Shown here: positions 49,499 through 57,550 of the stretch, in pieces | How positions within the stretch are numbered: position 1 is the stretch's first letter | Layout: each line of letters begins with the position of its first letter | Assembly: GCA_903826405.1 (NCBI GenBank) | Contig: CAIKEH010000020.1 | Coordinates: 1-62,465 of the forward strand | From: an uncultured bacterium | Lineage (GTDB): Bacteria > Bacteroidota > Bacteroidia > Chitinophagales > Chitinophagaceae | Reading direction: 5' to 3' | DNA: 62,465 nt | Translations under genes and position numbers: made by a program | Notes under the pieces: model-generated | Databases searched by the model: none | What the model was told of the DNA's origin: nothing | What the model saw: only the letters and a program-made list of their open reading frames with translations

Positions 49499-50236
49499 AT
49501 GAAAATGGATCTACTGGCCATCGGCGTACATCCCGATGATGTTGAACTCGGTTGCTCAGGAGTCATCCTCAATGAGGTGGCACAGGGTAAGAAAACCGGC
49601 ATCATTGATCTGACCCAAGGGGAGTTGGGCACTCGCGGAACCATCGAAACACGACATGCCGAAGCGACCGAGGCGGCTCGCATATTAGGAGTGTCTGCAA
49701 GGGAGAATCTGAAGTGGCGAGATGGATTTTTTCTGAATGATGAGGCTCATCAGATGCAACTCATCCGTACCATCAGAAAATATCGTCCAGATGTTGTCTT
49801 TGGAAATGTTCTGGACGATCGCCATCCTGACCATGGACGTGCCGGCCATATGACCGCTGATTGCTGTTTTCTTTCGGGTCTTTCTAAGATAGAAACTATT
49901 GATGAGGATGGTAATCCTCAGGAAAAATGGCGCCCCAAACTGGTCCTTCATTACCTGCAGGACTGGTACCACGAACCCGATATCTTCATTGATATATCCA
50001 GCGTCTTCGATAAACGGATGGAATCCATCATGGCATATGGCACGCAGTTTCATACTTCAGAGCAGGCCCAAAAAGGTCCTCAAACCTATATTTCCACACC
50101 TGACTTCTTGGACGCAGTCGTATCTCGAGCACGACTTTTCGGTAAACGTATAGGGGTCAAATATGCGGAAGGATTCATTACTGAAAAGAAGATCGGTATA
50201 AGGAATCTGGATGCACTTGTTCTTTTGGAAACTTGA
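49499..50236 (+). CDS. bshB1: Bacillithiol biosynthesis deacetylase BshB1
   Basis: 245 residues, PIG-L/LmbE fold. The zinc and catalytic motif HPDDVELGC is at about 11-19, followed by DLTQGELGTRGT, a BshB1 signature, and DDRHPDHGRA. It removes the acetyl group from GlcNAc-malate to give GlcN-malate, the substrate of BshC. BshC is encoded at 30172-31776 in this window. Full length. The aguB gene follows after 130 bp. Confidence 0.95.
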   Translation: MKMDLLAIGVHPDDVELGCSGVILNEVAQGKKTGIIDLTQGELGTRGTIETRHAEATEAARILGVSARENLKWRDGFFLNDEAHQMQLIRTIRKYRPDVVFGNVLDDRHPDHGRAGHMTADCCFLSGLSKIETIDEDGNPQEKWRPKLVLHYLQDWYHEPDIFIDISSVFDKRMESIMAYGTQFHTSEQAQKGPQTYISTPDFLDAVVSRARLFGKRIGVKYAEGFITEKKIGIRNLDALVLLET

Positions 50237-50366
50237 ACCTGCAATTTTCGGAATGCGGAGTGCACTGCCTTTTTACTGGCAACCGTATTTCCGAGCCGCT
50301 GCGGACTTTTCGCGAACCCTAATTTTCATGCTTGATGATTGATCAATTTTTTCCTAAACAGATGAT

Positions 50367-51236
50367 ATGTCAATGGTAAACGTAGGGCTAGTACAGATGA
50401 GTTGTTCGGCAGACAGATCCGCCAACCTGGAAAAGGCCATTCTAAGGGTCCGCGAGGCGGCATCCCTGGGTGCGCAGATCGTCTGCCTTCAAGAATTGTT
50501 CACATCATTGTATTTCTGCGATGTGGAGGATCACGATAATTTCTCGCTGGCAGAGGCCATACCCGGCCCATCCACAGACATTCTGGGATCATTGGCAAAA
50601 GAACTGGGTGTCGTGATCATCGCATCACTTTTCGAAAAGAGAGCACAAGGTCTTTATCATAATACCACCGCTATACTTGATGCAGACGGCACCTACCTGG
50701 GCAAGTACCGCAAGATGCATATACCGGATGATCCCGCTTATTATGAAAAATTCTATTTCACCCCGGGGGATCTGGGCTATAAGGTATTTGTTACGAAGTT
50801 CGCCACCATAGGTGTGCTCATCTGTTGGGATCAGTGGTATCCTGAAGCCGCCCGGATCACCGCACTGATGGGCGCTGAGATCCTGTTCTATCCTACGGCA
50901 ATAGGGTGGGCCACCAACCAGAACGAAGCAACGAATTCCGAGCAATATAATGCGTGGCAGATCATTCAGCGCAGCCATTCAGTTGCCAATGGTGTGCATG
51001 TGGTGAGCGTCAACCGTGTGGGATTTGAACAGAATGGGGCAATGAAGTTCTGGGGAGGGTCATTTGTTTCAAACCCATTTGGTGGCATCCTCTATCAAGC
51101 ATCACATGAAAATGAGGAGGTCAATGTGGTCGCTCTCGACCTGTCCAAGACTGATCAATATCGCACACATTGGCCTTTTTATCGTGATCGTCGAATCGAC
51201 TCGTATGGACCCATTACCCAGCGATACATAGATTAG
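50367..51236 (+). CDS. aguB: N-carbamoylputrescine amidase
   Basis: 289 residues, nitrilase superfamily. The Glu-Lys-Cys triad is E43 (LQELFTS), K116 (KYRKMHIPDDP) and C153 (LICWDQWYPEAAR). The sequence follows plant/Pseudomonas AguB closely, including YEKFYFTPGD and FYPTAIGW. It converts N-carbamoylputrescine to putrescine, CO2 and ammonia. Its partner aguA lies 2.7 kb downstream, separated by the kinase/lyase fusion gene. Confidence 0.95.
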   Translation: MSMVNVGLVQMSCSADRSANLEKAILRVREAASLGAQIVCLQELFTSLYFCDVEDHDNFSLAEAIPGPSTDILGSLAKELGVVIIASLFEKRAQGLYHNTTAILDADGTYLGKYRKMHIPDDPAYYEKFYFTPGDLGYKVFVTKFATIGVLICWDQWYPEAARITALMGAEILFYPTAIGWATNQNEATNSEQYNAWQIIQRSHSVANGVHVVSVNRVGFEQNGAMKFWGGSFVSNPFGGILYQASHENEEVNVVALDLSKTDQYRTHWPFYRDRRIDSYGPITQRYID

Positions 51237-51449
51237 ATATTTGGAACAGTACCATAGATCTAATCAGGTAAAACGTAGTAAATGCGATTCAGTAGTATAA
51301 ACAGTGCGTAACTGATCGGTTATTTTGGTACAAAACCATGGATCTGGTGTGCATGATCCTTCAGGATTTAAAGAAAATTGACCTGATGGAATTATTGAAT
51401 TTGAAACGGAATATATTCCCATAGTGTTTTAATCCCCACCTCAGTGCAT

Positions 51450-53696
51450 ATGGAACAAATAGAATCAATCTTCGGGATTTCGATATCGGGTGTTGAGGGC
51501 CTTGATGGGGATATCAACTATAGTAATAGGAAATTCAGGATCACCGGATCGGACGGGGTGAAATATATCCTGAAAATATTCCCTGATGCCCAAGAATGGA
51601 TGCTTGCAGAAGAGGAATCCATTATATTGGACAAGATCGGACATGAGCTTTCATTCCAGGTGCCGCAGAACATCAGACTTTCCGATGGCAGCATGTTCTT
51701 CGATTTTGAAAAAGACAAAGCAAAGCTGCTGTCTTTCATAGAAGGGGAATTCATGGCAAAAGTCCGGCATTCTCCAAAATTATTGATCTCCCTCGGCGAA
51801 AAAATTGCTGAACTGGATCTGTCGCTTCGATCTATAGACAGCCCTGTATTTGCTTCTAGACATTTATTCTGGGATATTCAGAACGCGCATTTAAGTCTGC
51901 CTAAAATACCACTCATCAAAGAGTCTGGGCAAAGGAAATTGGTCCAATACTATTTGGACCGCTTCACTGAAAATGTTTTGCCGATCCAGCATAATTTGAG
52001 GCATTCCATCATACATGGGGACTTGAATGACTATAATATTTTAGTGGAAAATGATGAGATAAAAGGTTTTTTGGATTTTGGTGATGCCACTTACTCTCCA
52101 TTGGTCAATGACCTTGCCGTTGCCTTGACTTATATCATGCTGAATAAGACCGATCCCTGGGAGGTTGTCCTTCCCATGATCCGTGGTTATCAAAAGCACA
52201 TCAAATTGACGAAAGAGGAGTTGGAACTGTTGCCTGATCTGATCACGTCAAGATTGTGCATCAGTCTTTGTAATTCGGCGGAGAAGAAGCATCTTGGTCA
52301 GGACAATGAATATGTCCTGATCAGCGAAAAACCGGCTTGGACGCTACTCGAACTTTGGTCACGGACAAACCCGATTAAAATCAAGAATTGTTTTCATGAA
52401 GCAGCAGGTTTCCCTTTGGTAGCGCGTACGCCAAAGAAGCATCAAGTTGATGTAAGGGCCAAAGTCTCCGGCAAGTCACTCGGATTGAGTTATGCTGATC
52501 CAATATATATGACTTCTGCATTGTTCCAATACATGTTCGATGAGGTCGGGAACAGCTATTTGGATTGCTACAATAATATTCCTCATGTAGGACATAGTCA
52601 TCCTGTGGTGAGTAAAGTTATTTCCAAGCAGGTCAGGGAATTGAATACGAACACGAGGTATTTGACGGATTCATTCAATACCTGCAGTGAAAAACTGTTG
52701 AGCCAATTTCCTGAACAATTATCCAAAATTTATTATCTGAACAGTGGAAGTGAAGCCTGTGATCTGGCAATCAGGATCGCACGAACCGTCACCAACAGGA
52801 AGACTGTAGTTGTGTTGGAGAATGGCTATCACGGCAATACTTCAACCGGTATTGAAATAAGTTCATATAAGTTTGATGGGAAAGGTGGGAGAGGTATCGG
52901 TCCGCATATCCTGAAACTTCCTTTGCCCAATTTGTTCAATGGTAAATTCAAAACCGCAAAAGAATTCGCTTATCATGCGATGGATGCCATCGAACAGCTT
53001 CCGGAAAAGCCTTGCGCTTTCATTGCTGAGCCCATTTCCGGATGCGGAGGTCAGGTTCCACTTGCTGGAGGCTATCTCAGTTATTTGTTCGATTATTTTT
53101 CTGTCAACGGGATCTTGACCATCAGTGATGAAGTTCAGACCGGTTTTGGGAGACTGGGCAAATGGTTTTGGGGTTTTCAGATGCATGATATTGTTCCAGA
53201 TATGGTTGTCCTTGGAAAACCAATGGGTAATGGTCAGCCTATTTCGGCTCTGGTCACGTCGAAGAAGATCTCCGATGATTTCACGAATGGCATGGAATTT
53301 TTCAGTTCTTTTGGCGGCAATCCTGTTTCCTGTGAGGTGGTAAAATCCGTACTGGAAATCATAGAAAGCGAAGATCTGCAGGGCAATGCAAGAGTAGTAG
53401 GGGATTATTTCAAGAGTCAACTGCAAGAGTTGAAAGATTCATTCCCATGCATGGCGGACGTCCGAGGTGAAGGATTATTCTTGGGGATAGAATTCCTTGA
53501 TAAAGCTCGCAAACCGGACAAGTCGATCGCAAATCATGTAAAGAATAAATTAAAAGACGAATTTATTCTGGTAGGTACGGACGGGCCATTTGACAATGTG
53601 ATCAAGATCAAGCCTCCGATGTGTTTTACCAAACAGAACGTTGATCTATTTGCATCTACTCTGGATCGGATTTTAAGATCAACTGATGCATTATAA
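51450..53696 (+). CDS. Fused aminoglycoside-phosphotransferase-type kinase and class III PLP-dependent phospho-lyase/aminotransferase
   Basis: 748 residues, two domains. Residues 1 to about 315 are an APH-type kinase: KYILKIF early, the catalytic loop IIHGDLNDYNIL (H189, D191) and LDFGD (D209). Residues about 335-748 are a class III aminotransferase fold with NSGSEACDLAIR, ISDEVQTGFGR and the PLP lysine K590 in LGKPMGNGQP. Relatives are hydroxylysine kinase (HYKK) and the phospho-lyases AGXT2L1/2, known as separate proteins in animals and as fusions in some bacteria. The chain would phosphorylate an amino alcohol and then eliminate phosphate and ammonia to give an aldehyde. ATG at 51450 is preferred to GTG at 51444. 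By eye the gene is more AT-rich than its neighbours. Confidence 0.88.
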   Translation: MEQIESIFGISISGVEGLDGDINYSNRKFRITGSDGVKYILKIFPDAQEWMLAEEESIILDKIGHELSFQVPQNIRLSDGSMFFDFEKDKAKLLSFIEGEFMAKVRHSPKLLISLGEKIAELDLSLRSIDSPVFASRHLFWDIQNAHLSLPKIPLIKESGQRKLVQYYLDRFTENVLPIQHNLRHSIIHGDLNDYNILVENDEIKGFLDFGDATYSPLVNDLAVALTYIMLNKTDPWEVVLPMIRGYQKHIKLTKEELELLPDLITSRLCISLCNSAEKKHLGQDNEYVLISEKPAWTLLELWSRTNPIKIKNCFHEAAGFPLVARTPKKHQVDVRAKVSGKSLGLSYADPIYMTSALFQYMFDEVGNSYLDCYNNIPHVGHSHPVVSKVISKQVRELNTNTRYLTDSFNTCSEKLLSQFPEQLSKIYYLNSGSEACDLAIRIARTVTNRKTVVVLENGYHGNTSTGIEISSYKFDGKGGRGIGPHILKLPLPNLFNGKFKTAKEFAYHAMDAIEQLPEKPCAFIAEPISGCGGQVPLAGGYLSYLFDYFSVNGILTISDEVQTGFGRLGKWFWGFQMHDIVPDMVVLGKPMGNGQPISALVTSKKISDDFTNGMEFFSSFGGNPVSCEVVKSVLEIIESEDLQGNARVVGDYFKSQLQELKDSFPCMADVRGEGLFLGIEFLDKARKPDKSIANHVKNKLKDEFILVGTDGPFDNVIKIKPPMCFTKQNVDLFASTLDRILRSTDAL

Positions 53697-53975
53697 AACA
53701 CACTGAGCATGGTTATTTTTGTGTTGTGAATAGCGAAATAAATCATAGGATAATCGATGTCTATTCGATTGGTAAAATGTCTTTCTCATATACAGCGATT
53801 ATATGTCTTTTTTAAATTCTATTTCATCTGGATCTACTAGTTCAGGTACTGATGAAGTTTTATTTCCATTCATTGGATTATCGCTTTAAGGATTTATTTT
53901 TGGTACAAATCTGGGTAATGTTAAAAGTGGTTTACTACACTGACTCATCCATTCACTAATCAATCAATTCTTTTC

Positions 53976-55016
53976 ATGTCCACTCCTCTTGAACTTGGTT
54001 ATGCTTTTCCTGCTGAATTCGAGCCACATGTGGCTACGTGGTTGAGTTGGCCGCACAAGGAAGCTTCGTGGCCTGGAAAGATCCATACGATTTTCCCCAG
54101 ATATTCTGAATTCATCCGTATTCTGGCTGAGAGTGAGAAGGTATGCATCAATGTTGCCGATGAAGAGATGCGGGCATTTGCGATGGAACATTTAAGCCTT
54201 GCAGGTGTGAATTTGGCTATGGTTGATTTTTTTCTTCATCCTACCAACGATGCATGGTGTCGTGATCATGGACCTGCTTTTGTGGTGAACACGAAGGAGA
54301 AGAAAAAAGCCATCGTAGATTGGAATTATAATGCTTGGGGTGGAAAATATCCTCCTTACGAGCTGGATGATGTGATACCCACTCGCATTGCTGAAAAACT
54401 AGGTTTACCGGTCTTTTATCCTGGAATCATCATGGAAGGCGGATCGGTGGAATTCAACGGGGAGGGTACGGTGATTACCTCAACATGCTGTTTACTTAAT
54501 GAGAACAGGAATCCTCTGCTTTCGCAGGCTGAGATCGAAAAATACCTTTGTGAATTTTATGGTCAGCAGCAGGTGTTGTGGGTGCATGAAGGTGTAGTGG
54601 GCGATGATACGGATGGGCATATTGATGATACTGTTCGGTTCGTGAATGCAGATACGGTGATCACTGTAGTGGAAGAGAGAAAAAGCGATCCCAATTTTTC
54701 TTTATTACAACGGAATCTTTCAGATTTGAAGAAAATGCGTTTATTGAACGGGAAGCAGTTGAATATCATAGAACTACATATGCCTGATGAAGTTATTTGG
54801 GAAGGGCAGTCACTTCCTGCTTCATATGCTAACTTCTACATATCCAACAAATCAGTAATCGTGCCGACGTTCCGAAATGAGGAAAAGGATGACAAGGCTT
54901 TGCAGATCATCGGAGCTTGTTTTCCGGATCGGATGACCGTCGGCATAGACTCAACGGACATCATTTGGGGATTGGGGAGCTTCCACTGCCTGAGCCAACA
55001 GGAGCCTGCAATTTGA
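53976..55016 (+). CDS. aguA: Agmatine deiminase
   Basis: 346 residues, peptidyl-arginine-deiminase (PAD_porph) fold. Motifs are NDAWCRDHGP, EGGSVEFNG, GDDTDGHIDDTVRF and the nucleophile C338 in GSFHCLSQQEPA. It converts agmatine to N-carbamoylputrescine, the substrate of AguB. No signal peptide, so it is the cytoplasmic AguA type rather than the secreted gingivalis PAD. Arginine decarboxylase (speA) is not in the window. Confidence 0.95.
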   Translation: MSTPLELGYAFPAEFEPHVATWLSWPHKEASWPGKIHTIFPRYSEFIRILAESEKVCINVADEEMRAFAMEHLSLAGVNLAMVDFFLHPTNDAWCRDHGPAFVVNTKEKKKAIVDWNYNAWGGKYPPYELDDVIPTRIAEKLGLPVFYPGIIMEGGSVEFNGEGTVITSTCCLLNENRNPLLSQAEIEKYLCEFYGQQQVLWVHEGVVGDDTDGHIDDTVRFVNADTVITVVEERKSDPNFSLLQRNLSDLKKMRLLNGKQLNIIELHMPDEVIWEGQSLPASYANFYISNKSVIVPTFRNEEKDDKALQIIGACFPDRMTVGIDSTDIIWGLGSFHCLSQQEPAI

Positions 55017-55082
55017 TTTTTGCTGTCAACGAAATTTCATTGCTGTATTTTATGTGATGAATACAGGCGATCATAATAGGCA

Positions 55083-56087
55083 TTACTCACTACCATGTTT
55101 CCTGTCACTGGATATATTCTCCACTGACCATTCGACTCTTTTCGCCAGATCATGTTTGCGTTCAGGACATACGGATTTGGAACAGATACGGCAGGAAAAA
55201 TCCAGGCATCCATCTGAGTGAACGAAAAACTCCACGGATTCCCCGAATTCATTCCGGACAATCTTCGAAAGTTCATCGATTTCAAAATGTGCCTCATGGA
55301 CATTGAGGAACCAAGGTACGGTAAGGTGGCAGTCCATGTGCAGGATGCTTCCGTATTTGATGATGCGGACGTTATGCAGGTCAACCCAGTTCTCCCGTCT
55401 TTTGCCATTCAATACGTGGACCATTTTACGGAGAAGTTCCTTATCCGCTTCATCCATGATGCCGGCAAGTGAACTTCTGATTATCCTATAACCTGTATAA
55501 ACGATAAGCAGTGCAAACAGGATGGCCACGGCGCTGTCTAGCCATGTCCATCTTGTAAATACCATCAGGATGAGTCCTGCTATGATGCCTATGGTCGAAT
55601 AGGTATCACTCTGCAGGTGTTTGCCAGAGGCAACAAGGGCAAGTGAATGATTGGCTTTGCCTTTCCTGAGACAGTACCATCCCACCATAAAATTTATAAT
55701 AGCGGTGAAGCTTACCAGATAAATGCCATAATCCAATTTCTGCAACTCATGAGGATGCCTCAGATTGTTGATGGCTTCATAAATGATAATGAGACCAGCA
55801 ATGAAGATCATGCTGCCTTCAAAGGCGGCGGATACGAATTCAGCTTTGCCGTGCCCATAGGGATGATCCTCATCCCGGGGCTTGGATGCCACGTAAAGGC
55901 TGTACAAACTGATGAAGCCGGCTACCACATTCACCGTACTTTCCAGAGCATCTGTCAGTATGGCCACAGACTTCGTCATGTACCAGGCAACTATCTTGAT
56001 GATGAATAATATCACCGATACGGATGCCACCAATTTTTGTACCCTTAAGTTCGCTTGGGCATTGCTCATGTTAGGGAATTGTTGCAA
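55083..56087 (-). CDS. Cation diffusion facilitator (CDF) transporter with Cys-rich tail
   Basis: 334 residues. Six membrane helices in the first 210 residues; ILTDALESTVNV in helix 2 and KHLQSDTYSTIG in helix 5 carry the metal-site residues, with HPYGHGKAE between helices 2 and 3. The C-terminal cytoplasmic domain ends with four Cys, C294-x4-C299-x2-C302-x4-C307, a possible extra metal site. It should export Zn, Fe or Mn against protons. ATG at 56069 (MSNAQAN) is an alternative start. Confidence 0.92.
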   Translation of the reverse strand: MQQFPNMSNAQANLRVQKLVASVSVILFIIKIVAWYMTKSVAILTDALESTVNVVAGFISLYSLYVASKPRDEDHPYGHGKAEFVSAAFEGSMIFIAGLIIIYEAINNLRHPHELQKLDYGIYLVSFTAIINFMVGWYCLRKGKANHSLALVASGKHLQSDTYSTIGIIAGLILMVFTRWTWLDSAVAILFALLIVYTGYRIIRSSLAGIMDEADKELLRKMVHVLNGKRRENWVDLHNVRIIKYGSILHMDCHLTVPWFLNVHEAHFEIDELSKIVRNEFGESVEFFVHSDGCLDFSCRICSKSVCPERKHDLAKRVEWSVENISSDRKHGSE

Positions 56088-56395
56088 ATGTAATCTTTCA
56101 TGTTATAGCAGATACGTTGGTTTCGGCGTAACTGAGCAAATTCAGGCATTTCCGGATACCCTATTAAATTTGACTAAATACTATAATTACTGATACGCAT
56201 AACATGAATTGAAGTACGTTTATTGTTTGCGCAGGTTTACCTGGACCACTAGCTGACTCAAATGATTTGTCATGGCTTTTTTACTTCCTTCATTCTGGAT
56301 AGAGGGGCGAAATAATACGAACAACTGTTAGTTTTGTTGAATGTTTGGGTTATTTTTAATCTGTAAATTGGTCAAACAAACTCAAAAATTGTCTT
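56088..56395. other. Divergent intergenic region, no gene seen
   Basis: 308 AT-rich bp between the CDF transporter (-) and acyl-CoA dehydrogenase (+). TAGTTTTG at 56329-56336 fits the Bacteroidota -7 consensus, 59 bp before the dehydrogenase start. No ORF or repeat. Confidence 0.4.
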
Positions 56396-57550
56396 ATGGA
56401 TTTCCAAATCTCAGATGAACAACTCATGATCCGCCAGGCTGCGCGTGATTTTGCCAGACTGGATTGCCTGCCCGGCGTGATAGAGCGTGATGAGCATCAG
56501 ATATTTCCACGTGAGCAGGTTTTGAAACTTTCGGACTTAGGTTTCATGGGAATGATGGTTGATCCTGAATACGGAGGATCTGGTTTAGATACAGTAAGTT
56601 ATGTGTTGGCCATGGAGGAGATCAGCAAAGTGGATGCGAGTACGAGTGTATGCATGAGTGTTAATAATAGTCTGGTCTGTTGGGGGCTTGAGTTTTTTGG
56701 GTCCGAAGAGCAAAAACGTAAATACCTCCATCCCTTAGCCCAGGGACGAAAGGACGGCAATCTATACATAGGTGCTTTTCTGCTGAGTGAACCTGAGGCG
56801 GGGAGTGATGCCTCCTCGCAGCATACGACCGCTGAGGATAAAGGTGATCATTACCTGCTGAACGGGACTAAAAATTGGATCACGAACGGGTCATCTGCAT
56901 CCGTTTATCTGGTCATGGCGCAGACTGATCCGACTCAAGGATCCAAGGGTATCAATACATTCATCGTTGAAAAAGATCAGCCGGGTGTGAGTGTAGGTGT
57001 CAAGGAAAACAAAATGGGTATCCGAGGCAGTGACACACACAGTATTTCATTTTCCGACGTCAAAGTGCCCCGCATCAATCGTATTGGGGATCATGGATTC
57101 GGATTCACATTCGCTATGAAGACGCTTGCTGGAGGTCGCATCGGCATCGCTGCTCAAGCTTTGGGTATTGCCAGCGGGGCCTACGAATTGGCGCTCGCAT
57201 ATTCAAAACAGCGCAAAGCTTTCGGGACGGAAATTGCTAAACATCAGGCGATACAATTCAAATTAGCAGATATGGCCACCCGGATCGAGGCGGCCAGACT
57301 GCTTTGTTTAAAATCTGCCTGGGAAAAGGATAATGGACAAGACTATGGATTGAGTTCATCCATGGCCAAGGTCTTCTCCTCAGAGACCGCCATGTGGGTG
57401 ACCACTGAAGCCGTGCAGATCCTAGGAGGTTATGGTTATGTCAAAGAATATCATGTGGAGCGCCTGATGCGTGATGCCAAGATCACTCAGATATATGAAG
57501 GTACCAGTGAGGTCCAAAGAATGGTCATCAGTCGGCAAATACTCAAATAG
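56396..57550 (+). CDS. Acyl-CoA dehydrogenase, short/medium-chain type
   Basis: 384 residues, FAD enzyme of the first step of beta-oxidation. FLLSEPEAGSDAS and NGTKNWITNG are the FAD/substrate motifs, and the catalytic base is E368 in YEGTSEVQRMVI, as in butyryl-CoA dehydrogenases. Full length. No other beta-oxidation or ETF gene is adjacent, so the chain-length preference is open. Its stop lies 75 bp before the ABC ATPase start. Confidence 0.95.
   Translation: MDFQISDEQLMIRQAARDFARLDCLPGVIERDEHQIFPREQVLKLSDLGFMGMMVDPEYGGSGLDTVSYVLAMEEISKVDASTSVCMSVNNSLVCWGLEFFGSEEQKRKYLHPLAQGRKDGNLYIGAFLLSEPEAGSDASSQHTTAEDKGDHYLLNGTKNWITNGSSASVYLVMAQTDPTQGSKGINTFIVEKDQPGVSVGVKENKMGIRGSDTHSISFSDVKVPRINRIGDHGFGFTFAMKTLAGGRIGIAAQALGIASGAYELALAYSKQRKAFGTEIAKHQAIQFKLADMATRIEAARLLCLKSAWEKDNGQDYGLSSSMAKVFSSETAMWVTTEAVQILGGYGYVKEYHVERLMRDAKITQIYEGTSEVQRMVISRQILK

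What the first reader, a model, noticed from the sequence alone, without database searches (positions are those of the whole stretch)
51450..53696. Kinase/phospho-lyase fusion lodged between aguB and aguA
Seen: one 748-residue protein joins an APH-type kinase (HGDLNDYNIL, DFG) to a class III PLP enzyme (K590), and its gene separates aguB from aguA. Known: animal hydroxylysine kinase and the AGXT2L phospho-lyases act in series, and bacterial fusions of the two exist. Inferred: here the pair may handle an amino alcohol connected with polyamine or lysine metabolism, or may be an insertion between two normally adjacent genes. The gene and its flanks look more AT-rich than the surroundings, which favours acquisition.
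Basis: partly seen in the sequence, partly recalled or inferred. Interest (0 to 1): 0.7.

Follow-up and report, generated by a model that had tools for sequence, protein, structure and literature searches.

The report
Inserted kinase–phospholyase fusion gene
A gene for a two-in-one enzyme that probably phosphorylates a small amino alcohol and then splits off phosphate and ammonia has been slipped between two putrescine-making genes, and its relatives appear to belong to a little-noticed bacterial route for digesting a collagen building block.

Summary
One 748-residue ORF (51450-53696) fuses an APH-type kinase to a class III PLP enzyme with Lys590, between aguB-like and aguA-like genes. Its closest solved relative is human ethanolamine-phosphate phospho-lyase.

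Insertion is well supported by gene order. In 19 of 22 same-genus genomes with both agu genes on one contig the gap is 13-153 bp, and none of the 22 has this gene there. Two carry DUF418 genes at that junction, so it tolerates insertions. Composition is weak evidence: GC is low (2nd percentile), but codon usage is ordinary and aguA has the same GC3. A polyamine link is not supported: none of 13 other clade members lies beside agu genes.

The genome holds a second fusion (41% identical) from a sister clade. In 36 of 50 loci read, that clade lies near glycosidase, 2-oxoadipate decarboxylase, piperidine-6-carboxylate dehydrogenase or hydroxyproline-type genes, which suggests use of collagen's glycosylated hydroxylysine. 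The window's clade shows none of these (0 of 14), and 40 columns separate the clades. The window enzyme is probably a kinase-phospholyase for a small amino alcohol, substrate unproven. It alone carries Gln596 where the readable relatives have His.

The parts
51450..53696 (+). Fusion gene: APH-type kinase plus class III PLP phospho-lyase-like enzyme, 748 aa
51516..52157 (+). Kinase domain (PF01636, residues 23-236)
   Evidence: K42, D191, N196, D209 present in all 13 clade A and 35 clade B rows
52014..52037 (+). Kinase catalytic loop HGDLNDYN (residues 189-196)
52509..53675 (+). PLP domain (PF00202, residues 354-742), nearest solved structures 6tor and 5g4i
53217..53219 (+). Codon of Lys590, the PLP lysine
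   Evidence: aligned with 6tor and 5g4i lysine
53235..53237 (+). Codon of Gln596, where relatives have His (GNGHP)
   Evidence: 66 of 67 rows read by the pattern have His, the window row is the exception (71 rows in all, 4 not read); His in 13 of 13 clade A and 34 of 34 readable clade B rows
50367..51236 (+). aguB-like N-carbamoylputrescine amidase
   Evidence: below curated cut-off
53976..55016 (+). aguA-like agmatine deiminase
   Evidence: below curated cut-offs
51237..51449 (+). Left flank of the insertion (GC 0.357); the relatives' short gaps read show nothing like it by eye
53697..53975 (+). Right flank of the insertion (GC 0.308)
51323..51334 (+). Left copy of 12-bp direct repeat TTTTGGTACAAA
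53898..53909 (+). Right copy of the 12-bp direct repeat
53873..53902 (+). Bacteroidota-type promoter-like site TTG-N19-TATTTTTG before aguA
   Evidence: consensus recalled

Best explanation
The gene encodes a bifunctional enzyme. The N-terminal APH-fold kinase uses ATP to phosphorylate the hydroxyl group of an amino alcohol that has an amino group on the neighbouring carbon. The C-terminal PLP domain forms an aldimine with that amine on Lys590 and expels phosphate, and the enamine collapses to an aldehyde plus ammonia. Placing both sites on one chain would couple the steps. The gene came into this lineage horizontally and landed in the permissive gap between aguB and aguA. It probably serves carbon or nitrogen salvage from an amino alcohol, not putrescine synthesis. 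Shown: fusion, catalytic residues, closest relatives, insertion by gene order, no agu link in relatives, membership of a clade distinct from the collagen-associated one. Inferred: the reaction itself, the substrate (ethanolamine about 35%, 5-hydroxylysine about 30%, another amino alcohol the rest), and expression from its own promoter.
For: Domains. Best solved match 6tor, human ethanolamine-phosphate phospho-lyase, E 1.9e-110; second 5g4i, bacterial phospholyase, 7.2e-76; class III racemases and transaminases follow at 9e-53 or weaker. K42, D191, N196, D209, D560, Q563, R568 and K590 are the same in all readable rows of both clades and in the window protein. Of 102 columns invariant in 46 other full-length rows the window keeps 97. 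Insertion: agu spacing in 19 of 22 same-genus genomes; the four other same-genus genomes with a match at 1e-60 carry the other clade. Closest relative G764 (52%) lies in another genus of the family with a different context. In the three Acidobacterial clade members aldo/keto reductase-like and alcohol dehydrogenase-like genes lie next to or near the fusion; the one tested passes the cut-off for NADPH-dependent aldehyde reductase Ahr (L040, 528 bits, cut-off 470). That suits an aldehyde product.
Against: His596, conserved in both solved phospholyases and in all readable relatives, is Gln here. The window departs from 5 of the 102 columns that are otherwise invariant (N28K, I208L, S345G, H596Q, A608S), level with G057 for the most of any row. 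The gene's branch is long (1.14 changes per column), so activity may have drifted or weakened. No genomic context in its clade points to one substrate. No assay exists.
Confidence: 0.7

Rival explanations
1. The window gene is itself a 5-hydroxylysine kinase / 5-phosphohydroxylysine phospholyase, a second copy of the collagen-hydroxylysine enzyme that the genome already has on contig 40.
For: The sister clade is linked to hydroxylysine by context. Two three-domain relatives lie within about 2-7 kb of an HGLS gene, so the role may be ancestral; one tree, of PLP domains, joins clades A and B as sisters, weakly (SH-aLRT 88). This genome has piperidine-6-carboxylate dehydrogenase and a hydroxyproline-type gene set on contig 44. 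Four Bacteroidota clade A genomes of the phylum sample (G197, G261, G362, G378) also have piperidine-6-carboxylate dehydrogenase, and G362 has HGLS.
Against: 0 of 14 clade A loci carry HGLS, P6C dehydrogenase, GH63-like, GH42 or GH2 neighbours or the hydroxyproline-type pair, against 36 of 50 clade B loci (35 without the hydroxyproline-type pair). Forty columns separate the clades; the window has the clade A letter at 30, the clade B letter at 4, neither at 6. P6C dehydrogenase was not found at E 1e-150 in the four named clade A genomes, three Acidobacteria and one Chitinophagales. No HGLS was found in the window genome at 1e-10, which also weakens the full pathway for the contig-40 copy.
Confidence: 0.3
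2. The gene acts on a hydroxylated diamine or another polyamine-derived amino alcohol and was kept between aguB and aguA because of that pathway.
For: Position in the window. On Proteobacterial plasmids the distant split kinase/lyase pair sits, in two of four regions read, with a weakly PotD-like solute-binding protein, permeases, an SDR, and an SSADH or GABA transaminase gene, which would suit hydroxyputrescine or 4-amino-3-hydroxybutyrate.
Against: None of 13 other clade A loci shows aguA or aguB in the stretch read; the junction also accepts unrelated DUF418 genes; the plasmid proteins are only about 34% identical and form a separate branch.
Confidence: 0.1
3. The enzyme is decaying or has lost one activity after transfer.
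For: Long branch; 22 departures from 178 well conserved columns, second highest of the 22 rows counted; five departures from 102 columns otherwise invariant in 46 rows, His596 to Gln among them.
Against: Open frame of full length, ordinary codon usage, catalytic residues of both domains intact, 97 of 102 otherwise invariant columns kept.
Confidence: 0.14

Closest known systems
Human ETNPPL (6tor), O-phosphoethanolamine phospho-lyase, and the animal HYKK/PHYKPL pair (Veiga-da-Cunha et al. 2012, seen only as a reference in PMC8154272)
   Same: Class III PLP fold, PLP lysine in GKPMGNG, 44% identity over the domain; kinase followed by phospho-lyase chemistry
   Different: In animals kinase and lyase are separate proteins (recalled); here fused; His of GNGHP replaced by Gln; substrate unknown
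Paenarthrobacter (Arthrobacter) aurescens phospholyase A1RDF1 (5g4i, 5g4j)
   Same: Shares several clade A residues (Y374, P378, N463, T464)
   Different: 32% identity, stand-alone lyase; its reported substrate phosphoethanolamine is recalled, not read here
PRK06148 / NF004799 three-domain proteins (APH, Peptidase_M23, Aminotran_3; about 1,000 aa)
   Same: Same two catalytic domains in the same order
   Different: No M23 domain; 722.6 bits against a cut-off of 1128
Clade B two-domain fusions, including G000:C40:55644-57890
   Same: Same architecture, about 40% identity, same catalytic residues
   Different: Different signature residues and a recurrent collagen-hydroxylysine-like gene context that the window gene lacks

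Membership tests
Class III PLP phospho-lyase (ETNPPL/A1RDF1 kind) | Closest relatives are phospho-lyases, not transaminases | tested here: met
   6tor 1.9e-110 and 5g4i 7.2e-76 lead among solved structures; next 9.3e-53, a racemase
Class III PLP phospho-lyase (ETNPPL/A1RDF1 kind) | PLP lysine in the GK-P-x-G-N-G motif | tested here: met
   Lys590 aligned
Class III PLP phospho-lyase (ETNPPL/A1RDF1 kind) | Conserved His of GNGHP | tested here: not met
   Gln596 in the window; His in the 66 other rows read of 71. That this His is defining is my inference from conservation
Class III PLP phospho-lyase (ETNPPL/A1RDF1 kind) | Elimination of phosphate and ammonia from an O-phospho amine | not testable with these tools
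   needs an assay
APH-fold small-molecule kinase | ATP-site Lys, H-x-D-x-N-x-x-N loop, DFG Asp | tested here: met
   K42, D191, N196, D209
Animal-type hydroxylysine kinase (HYKK) | Orthology to HYKK and activity on 5-hydroxylysine | not tested
   no HYKK sequence was compared; best solved kinase match is a homoserine kinase, 1.1e-05
NF004799 (PRK06148) | Score over the curated cut-off and central M23 domain | tested here: not met
   722.6 of 1128 bits; no PF01551
Collagen-hydroxylysine cluster enzyme (clade B) | Clade B membership and signature residues | tested here: not met
   window falls in clade A, 100/100; clade A letter at 30 of 40 diagnostic columns
Collagen-hydroxylysine cluster enzyme (clade B) | Neighbouring GH63-like, beta-galactosidase, HGLS or P6C dehydrogenase genes | tested here: not met
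   the six neighbours scanned are other families; 0 of 14 clade A loci, window included
agu (putrescine) operon member | Three-gene order kept in relatives | tested here: not met
   0 of 22 same-genus pairs; 0 of 13 other clade A loci

The most novel reading that the evidence does not exclude
Two-domain fusions of Bacteroidota are bacterial hydroxylysine kinase / phosphohydroxylysine phospholyases of a dedicated collagen-glycan pathway. A SusC/D pair imports Glc-alpha-1,2-Gal-hydroxylysine. A GH63/YgjK-like alpha-glucosidase and a GH2 or GH42 beta-galactosidase strip the sugars. The fusion makes aminoadipate semialdehyde. P6C dehydrogenase, a transaminase, HGLS and a YdiJ-like D-2-hydroxyglutarate dehydrogenase carry it to 2-oxoglutarate. 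The window gene is a divergent sister enzyme whose specificity moved to another amino alcohol.
Probability: 0.4. Interest if true: 0.75.

Novelty: new variant of a known kind. Interest (0 to 1): 0.5.

Why it matters
Hydroxylysine is a regular part of collagen, and how bacteria break it down seems poorly described. The search listings seen here named no paper on a bacterial hydroxylysine kinase, a bacterial phosphohydroxylysine lyase or a glucosylgalactosyl-hydroxylysine utilisation locus. Those listings come from one open-access library and some were capped: 8 of 8; 20 of 169; 1 of 1; 3 of 3; 12 of 4,036; 1 of 1; 15 of 3,670. If the sister-clade reading holds, a pathway from collagen glycan to 2-oxoglutarate can be tested in one operon. 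The window gene then serves as a natural contrast: same chemistry, different signature residues, probably a different substrate.

Tried and rejected
Polyamine operon member: rejected by gene order. Recent acquisition judged by composition alone: weak, because aguA and bshB1 have the same GC3 and codon usage is ordinary. Mobile element: none of the six neighbours scanned is a transposase; the 12-bp direct repeat could be a target duplication or a shared promoter sequence and was left open. Rfam found nothing at gathering score in 50000-56400. The AlphaFold model was weak (mean pLDDT 65.6, pTM 0.49, PLP domain worst), so its Foldseek hits, although led by 6tor, were not used for active-site geometry. 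P6C dehydrogenase across the phylum is uninformative because 197 of 395 genomes have it. The genome-level overlap of fusion and HGLS genes (7 genomes; 38 and 24 of 395) is above expectation but not corrected for kinship. The recount without it gives 97 of 102, and for that I raised the odds of the decay rival from 0.12 to 0.14.

Rows dropped: three three-domain rows were removed as duplicates of genomes already in the set. L070 and the split pair of G312 (L085) did not enter the trees, nor did the hits listed after L070 without loci, except G053, which was fetched apart. G198 (sister to clade B) was left out of the clade B residue counts and of the 50 context loci; its neighbours shared no family with the others. 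G036 is a partial gene at a contig end; it was left out of the last tree and, with G015, of the invariant-column counts. Of 25 further family hits of clade B type, 19 were fetched and 6 were not. Only 2-5 candidates per genome were scored in some searches, and flanks are short at contig ends for several loci, so counts of neighbours are lower bounds.
Full report
What is there. The frame 51450-53696 encodes 748 residues. Residues 23-236 match the phosphotransferase family APH and residues 354-742 the class III aminotransferase family. Against solved structures the best match is human ethanolamine-phosphate phospho-lyase 6tor (1.9e-110), then the bacterial phospholyase 5g4i (7.2e-76). The next, a racemase, stands at 9.3e-53. 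The kinase half matches only a homoserine kinase clearly (2ppq, 1.1e-05). The gene stands between genes whose best curated matches are N-carbamoylputrescine amidase and agmatine deiminase, both below their curated cut-offs.

Is it an insertion? Searches with the three proteins covered 60 genomes, of which 36 are other members of the genus. Twenty-two of these 36 have aguB and aguA on one contig. In 19 the gap is 13-153 bp, in one 417 bp, and in two about 2.9 and 3.1 kb (recomputed). The two large gaps hold two DUF418 genes each. In G015, aguB is followed by an ORF that reads like the first of these, but it was cut by the end of the stretch that I fetched and gave no Pfam match. In none of the 22 is the fusion gene between the pair. 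Four of the 36 have a fusion match at 1e-60 elsewhere, and all four belong to a different clade. So the gene most simply entered the gap in the lineage of this genome, at a place that also accepts other genes. The relatives' gaps that I read show nothing like the flanks in the window by eye; none of the short gaps contains GGTAC. A sister species outside the sampled genomes could still change this picture.

Composition. Among 237 ORFs of 200 codons or more, drawn from the window and 21 further stretches of the same genome, the fusion ranks at 2.1% for GC and 3.8% for GC3. Its codon fit ranks at 43.5%. aguA and bshB1 rank at 3.4% and 2.5% for GC3. The whole stretch 51237-53975 has GC 0.409, at the 0.7 percentile of 686 overlapping segments, partly because the two gaps are very AT-rich. 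Composition agrees with acquisition but does not prove it.

Flanks. TTTTGGTACAAA occurs at 51323 and 53898, once on each side. It occurs in no other of the 155 loci held at the time of the search (the one locus with matches, L001, is the window region). With one mismatch allowed the window has the same two matches, against 0.31 expected, and 3 of 100 shuffles reach two. A promoter-like TTG-N19-TATTTTTG (Bacteroidota consensus, recalled) lies at 53873-53902 before aguA and overlaps the right copy; shuffled versions of that gap give such a site in 2.65% of cases. The repeat may mark the insertion, or it may be a promoter sequence that both genes share.

Two clades. The genome has a second full-length fusion at G000:C40:55644-57890, 41% identical. 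A tree of 50 proteins splits them into clade A (14 rows, with the window gene and its closest relative G764 together at 100/100) and clade B (35 rows, plus G198 as sister), 100/100. A tree of 44 PLP domains gave the same two groups. The trees disagree on what lies between: the three-domain proteins and human ETNPPL lie nearer clade B, in the quick tree clades A and B are sisters (SH-aLRT 88). K42, D191, N196, D209, D560, Q563, R568 and K590 are common to all readable rows. Forty columns separate the clades, for example Y374/V, P378/S, T464/S, C532/V, S619/N and S620/T; these six stay clean or nearly so in the larger set. At the forty columns the window has the clade A letter 30 times, the clade B letter 4 times and neither 6 times. 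Of 102 columns invariant in 46 other rows it keeps 97. One of the five departures is His596 to Gln in GNGHP: of 71 rows, 66 have His, the window has Gln and four were not read by the pattern; three of those four have His in the alignment and the fourth is truncated.

What clade B does. In the genus coded g41, 23 of 199 genomes carry a clade B gene at 1e-130. With G343 and G382 that makes 25 loci. In 23 of the 25 a GH63/YgjK-like glycosidase and a GH42 beta-galactosidase lie within about 10 kb, usually next to it; 15 of the 25 also have SusC and SusD relatives of 70% identity or more (families). The GH63-like protein passes the Pfam GH63 cut-off, scores best with an MGH1-like domain, and falls short of the curated YgjK-type alpha-glucosidase model (359 of 625 bits). 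Thirteen have a YdiJ-like D-2-hydroxyglutarate dehydrogenase, one of them only 52% like the reference; the reference itself scores 570 bits against a cut-off of 1350. Four of these genomes (G084, G303, G382, G509) carry an HGLS gene and a P6C dehydrogenase gene within about 12 kb of the fusion. The P6C dehydrogenase of G084 passes its curated cut-off (826 against 730). In the window's own family, 19 clade B loci were read. Seven have HGLS and P6C dehydrogenase on the same stretch within a few kb, five the GH63-like gene, six a GH2 beta-galactosidase, ten at least one of these, nine none. Three (L141, L153, L155) have the full order SusC-SusD-GH2-GH63-fusion-HGLS-P6CDH. HGLS is rare in the phylum: 24 of 395 genomes. 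In the window's genus, G010 and G036 have the fusion beside a DHDPS-family gene and an aldehyde dehydrogenase, which look like hydroxyproline breakdown though below the curated cut-offs, while G008 and G015 show none of the markers. The window genome has a proline racemase, DHDPS-family and aldehyde dehydrogenase set on contig 44, and its contig-40 fusion lies beside a GH42 gene, but no HGLS was found in it. Collagen carries Glc-alpha-1,2-Gal on hydroxylysine (passages of PMC8626586, and of PMC11012932). The steps fit: strip glucose, strip galactose, phosphorylate hydroxylysine, eliminate to aminoadipate semialdehyde, oxidise through P6C dehydrogenase, then HGLS and 2-hydroxyglutarate dehydrogenase to 2-oxoglutarate. 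This is inference from gene clustering, supported by counts that are not corrected for kinship.

What clade A, and the window gene, does. None of 14 clade A loci (window included) has those neighbours in the stretch read, against 36 of 50 clade B loci, or 35 without the hydroxyproline-type pair (Fisher 8e-7 for 36 of 50, not corrected for kinship). Only the window gene is beside agu genes. Neighbours vary: DgcN and DgcA likenesses in G362, below their cut-offs, an esterase gene overlapping the fusion in G764, aldo/keto reductase and alcohol dehydrogenase types in Acidobacteria. P6C dehydrogenase was not found in the four named clade A genomes (their completeness is unknown), but it is present in four Bacteroidota clade A genomes, as in half of the phylum sample. 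I therefore favour the same two-step chemistry on another amino alcohol. Ethanolamine is the first candidate because human ETNPPL bears that name and A1RDF1's substrate, as I recall it, is the same. Hydroxylysine remains possible.

Other branches. Three-domain relatives with an M23 domain lie near an HGLS gene in G292 and G188. On Proteobacterial plasmids the pair is split into two genes in the four regions read. In two of these, E. coli and Rahnella, it sits with two ABC permeases and a solute-binding protein weakly PotD-like (about 50 of 582 bits). The Pseudomonas region has a solute-binding protein of the same Pfam family, and the Azospirillum region has only a GntR regulator beside it. An SSADH gene is present in the E. 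coli region and a GABA transaminase gene in the Rahnella one. So this kinase-lyase module seems to be fitted to several amino alcohols.

Literature. Read as passages only: PMC8626586, PMC8154272, PMC11012932. PMC8154272 cites the 2012 identification of hydroxylysine kinase and the two animal phospho-lyases; that paper and the A1RDF1 structure paper were not held. The listings of ten searches named no bacterial hydroxylysine kinase, phosphohydroxylysine lyase or collagen-glycan locus; the library is open-access only and searches were capped lists.

Noticed in passing
L017 5609-10094 (G000:C40): Second kinase-phospholyase fusion of this genome, clade B, directly beside a GH42 beta-galactosidase.
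   Followed up: yes
L141, L153, L155: Clusters SusC-SusD-GH2-GH63-fusion-HGLS-P6C dehydrogenase that look like a complete collagen glucosylgalactosyl-hydroxylysine pathway.
   Followed up: partly
L075-L078, L106-L126: In one genus 23 of 25 fusion loci have both a GH63/YgjK-like and a GH42 gene nearby.
   Followed up: yes
L018 2892-5632, L019 1036-4006: Two DUF418 genes inserted at the same aguB-aguA junction in two other species of the genus.
   Followed up: yes
51323-51334 and 53898-53909: 12-bp direct repeat TTTTGGTACAAA flanking the gene, absent from the other loci searched; target duplication or shared promoter element is open.
   Followed up: partly
53873-53902: Bacteroidota-type promoter-like sequence before aguA that may restore its transcription after the insertion.
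   Followed up: partly
L029 11271-13000 and L032 1483-4040: Fusion genes of the same genus beside likely hydroxyproline-breakdown genes.
   Followed up: partly
L133, L134: Three-domain relatives (with an M23 domain) lie within about 2-7 kb of an HGLS gene.
   Followed up: no
L174, L176, L177: Split kinase and lyase genes on plasmids with SBP_bac_8-type transporter genes, SDR and, in two of them, SSADH or GABA transaminase, suggesting a hydroxy-GABA or hydroxyputrescine substrate.
   Followed up: partly
L085 5603-7959 (G312): A Bacteroidota genome in which kinase and lyase are two neighbouring genes instead of one fusion.
   Followed up: no
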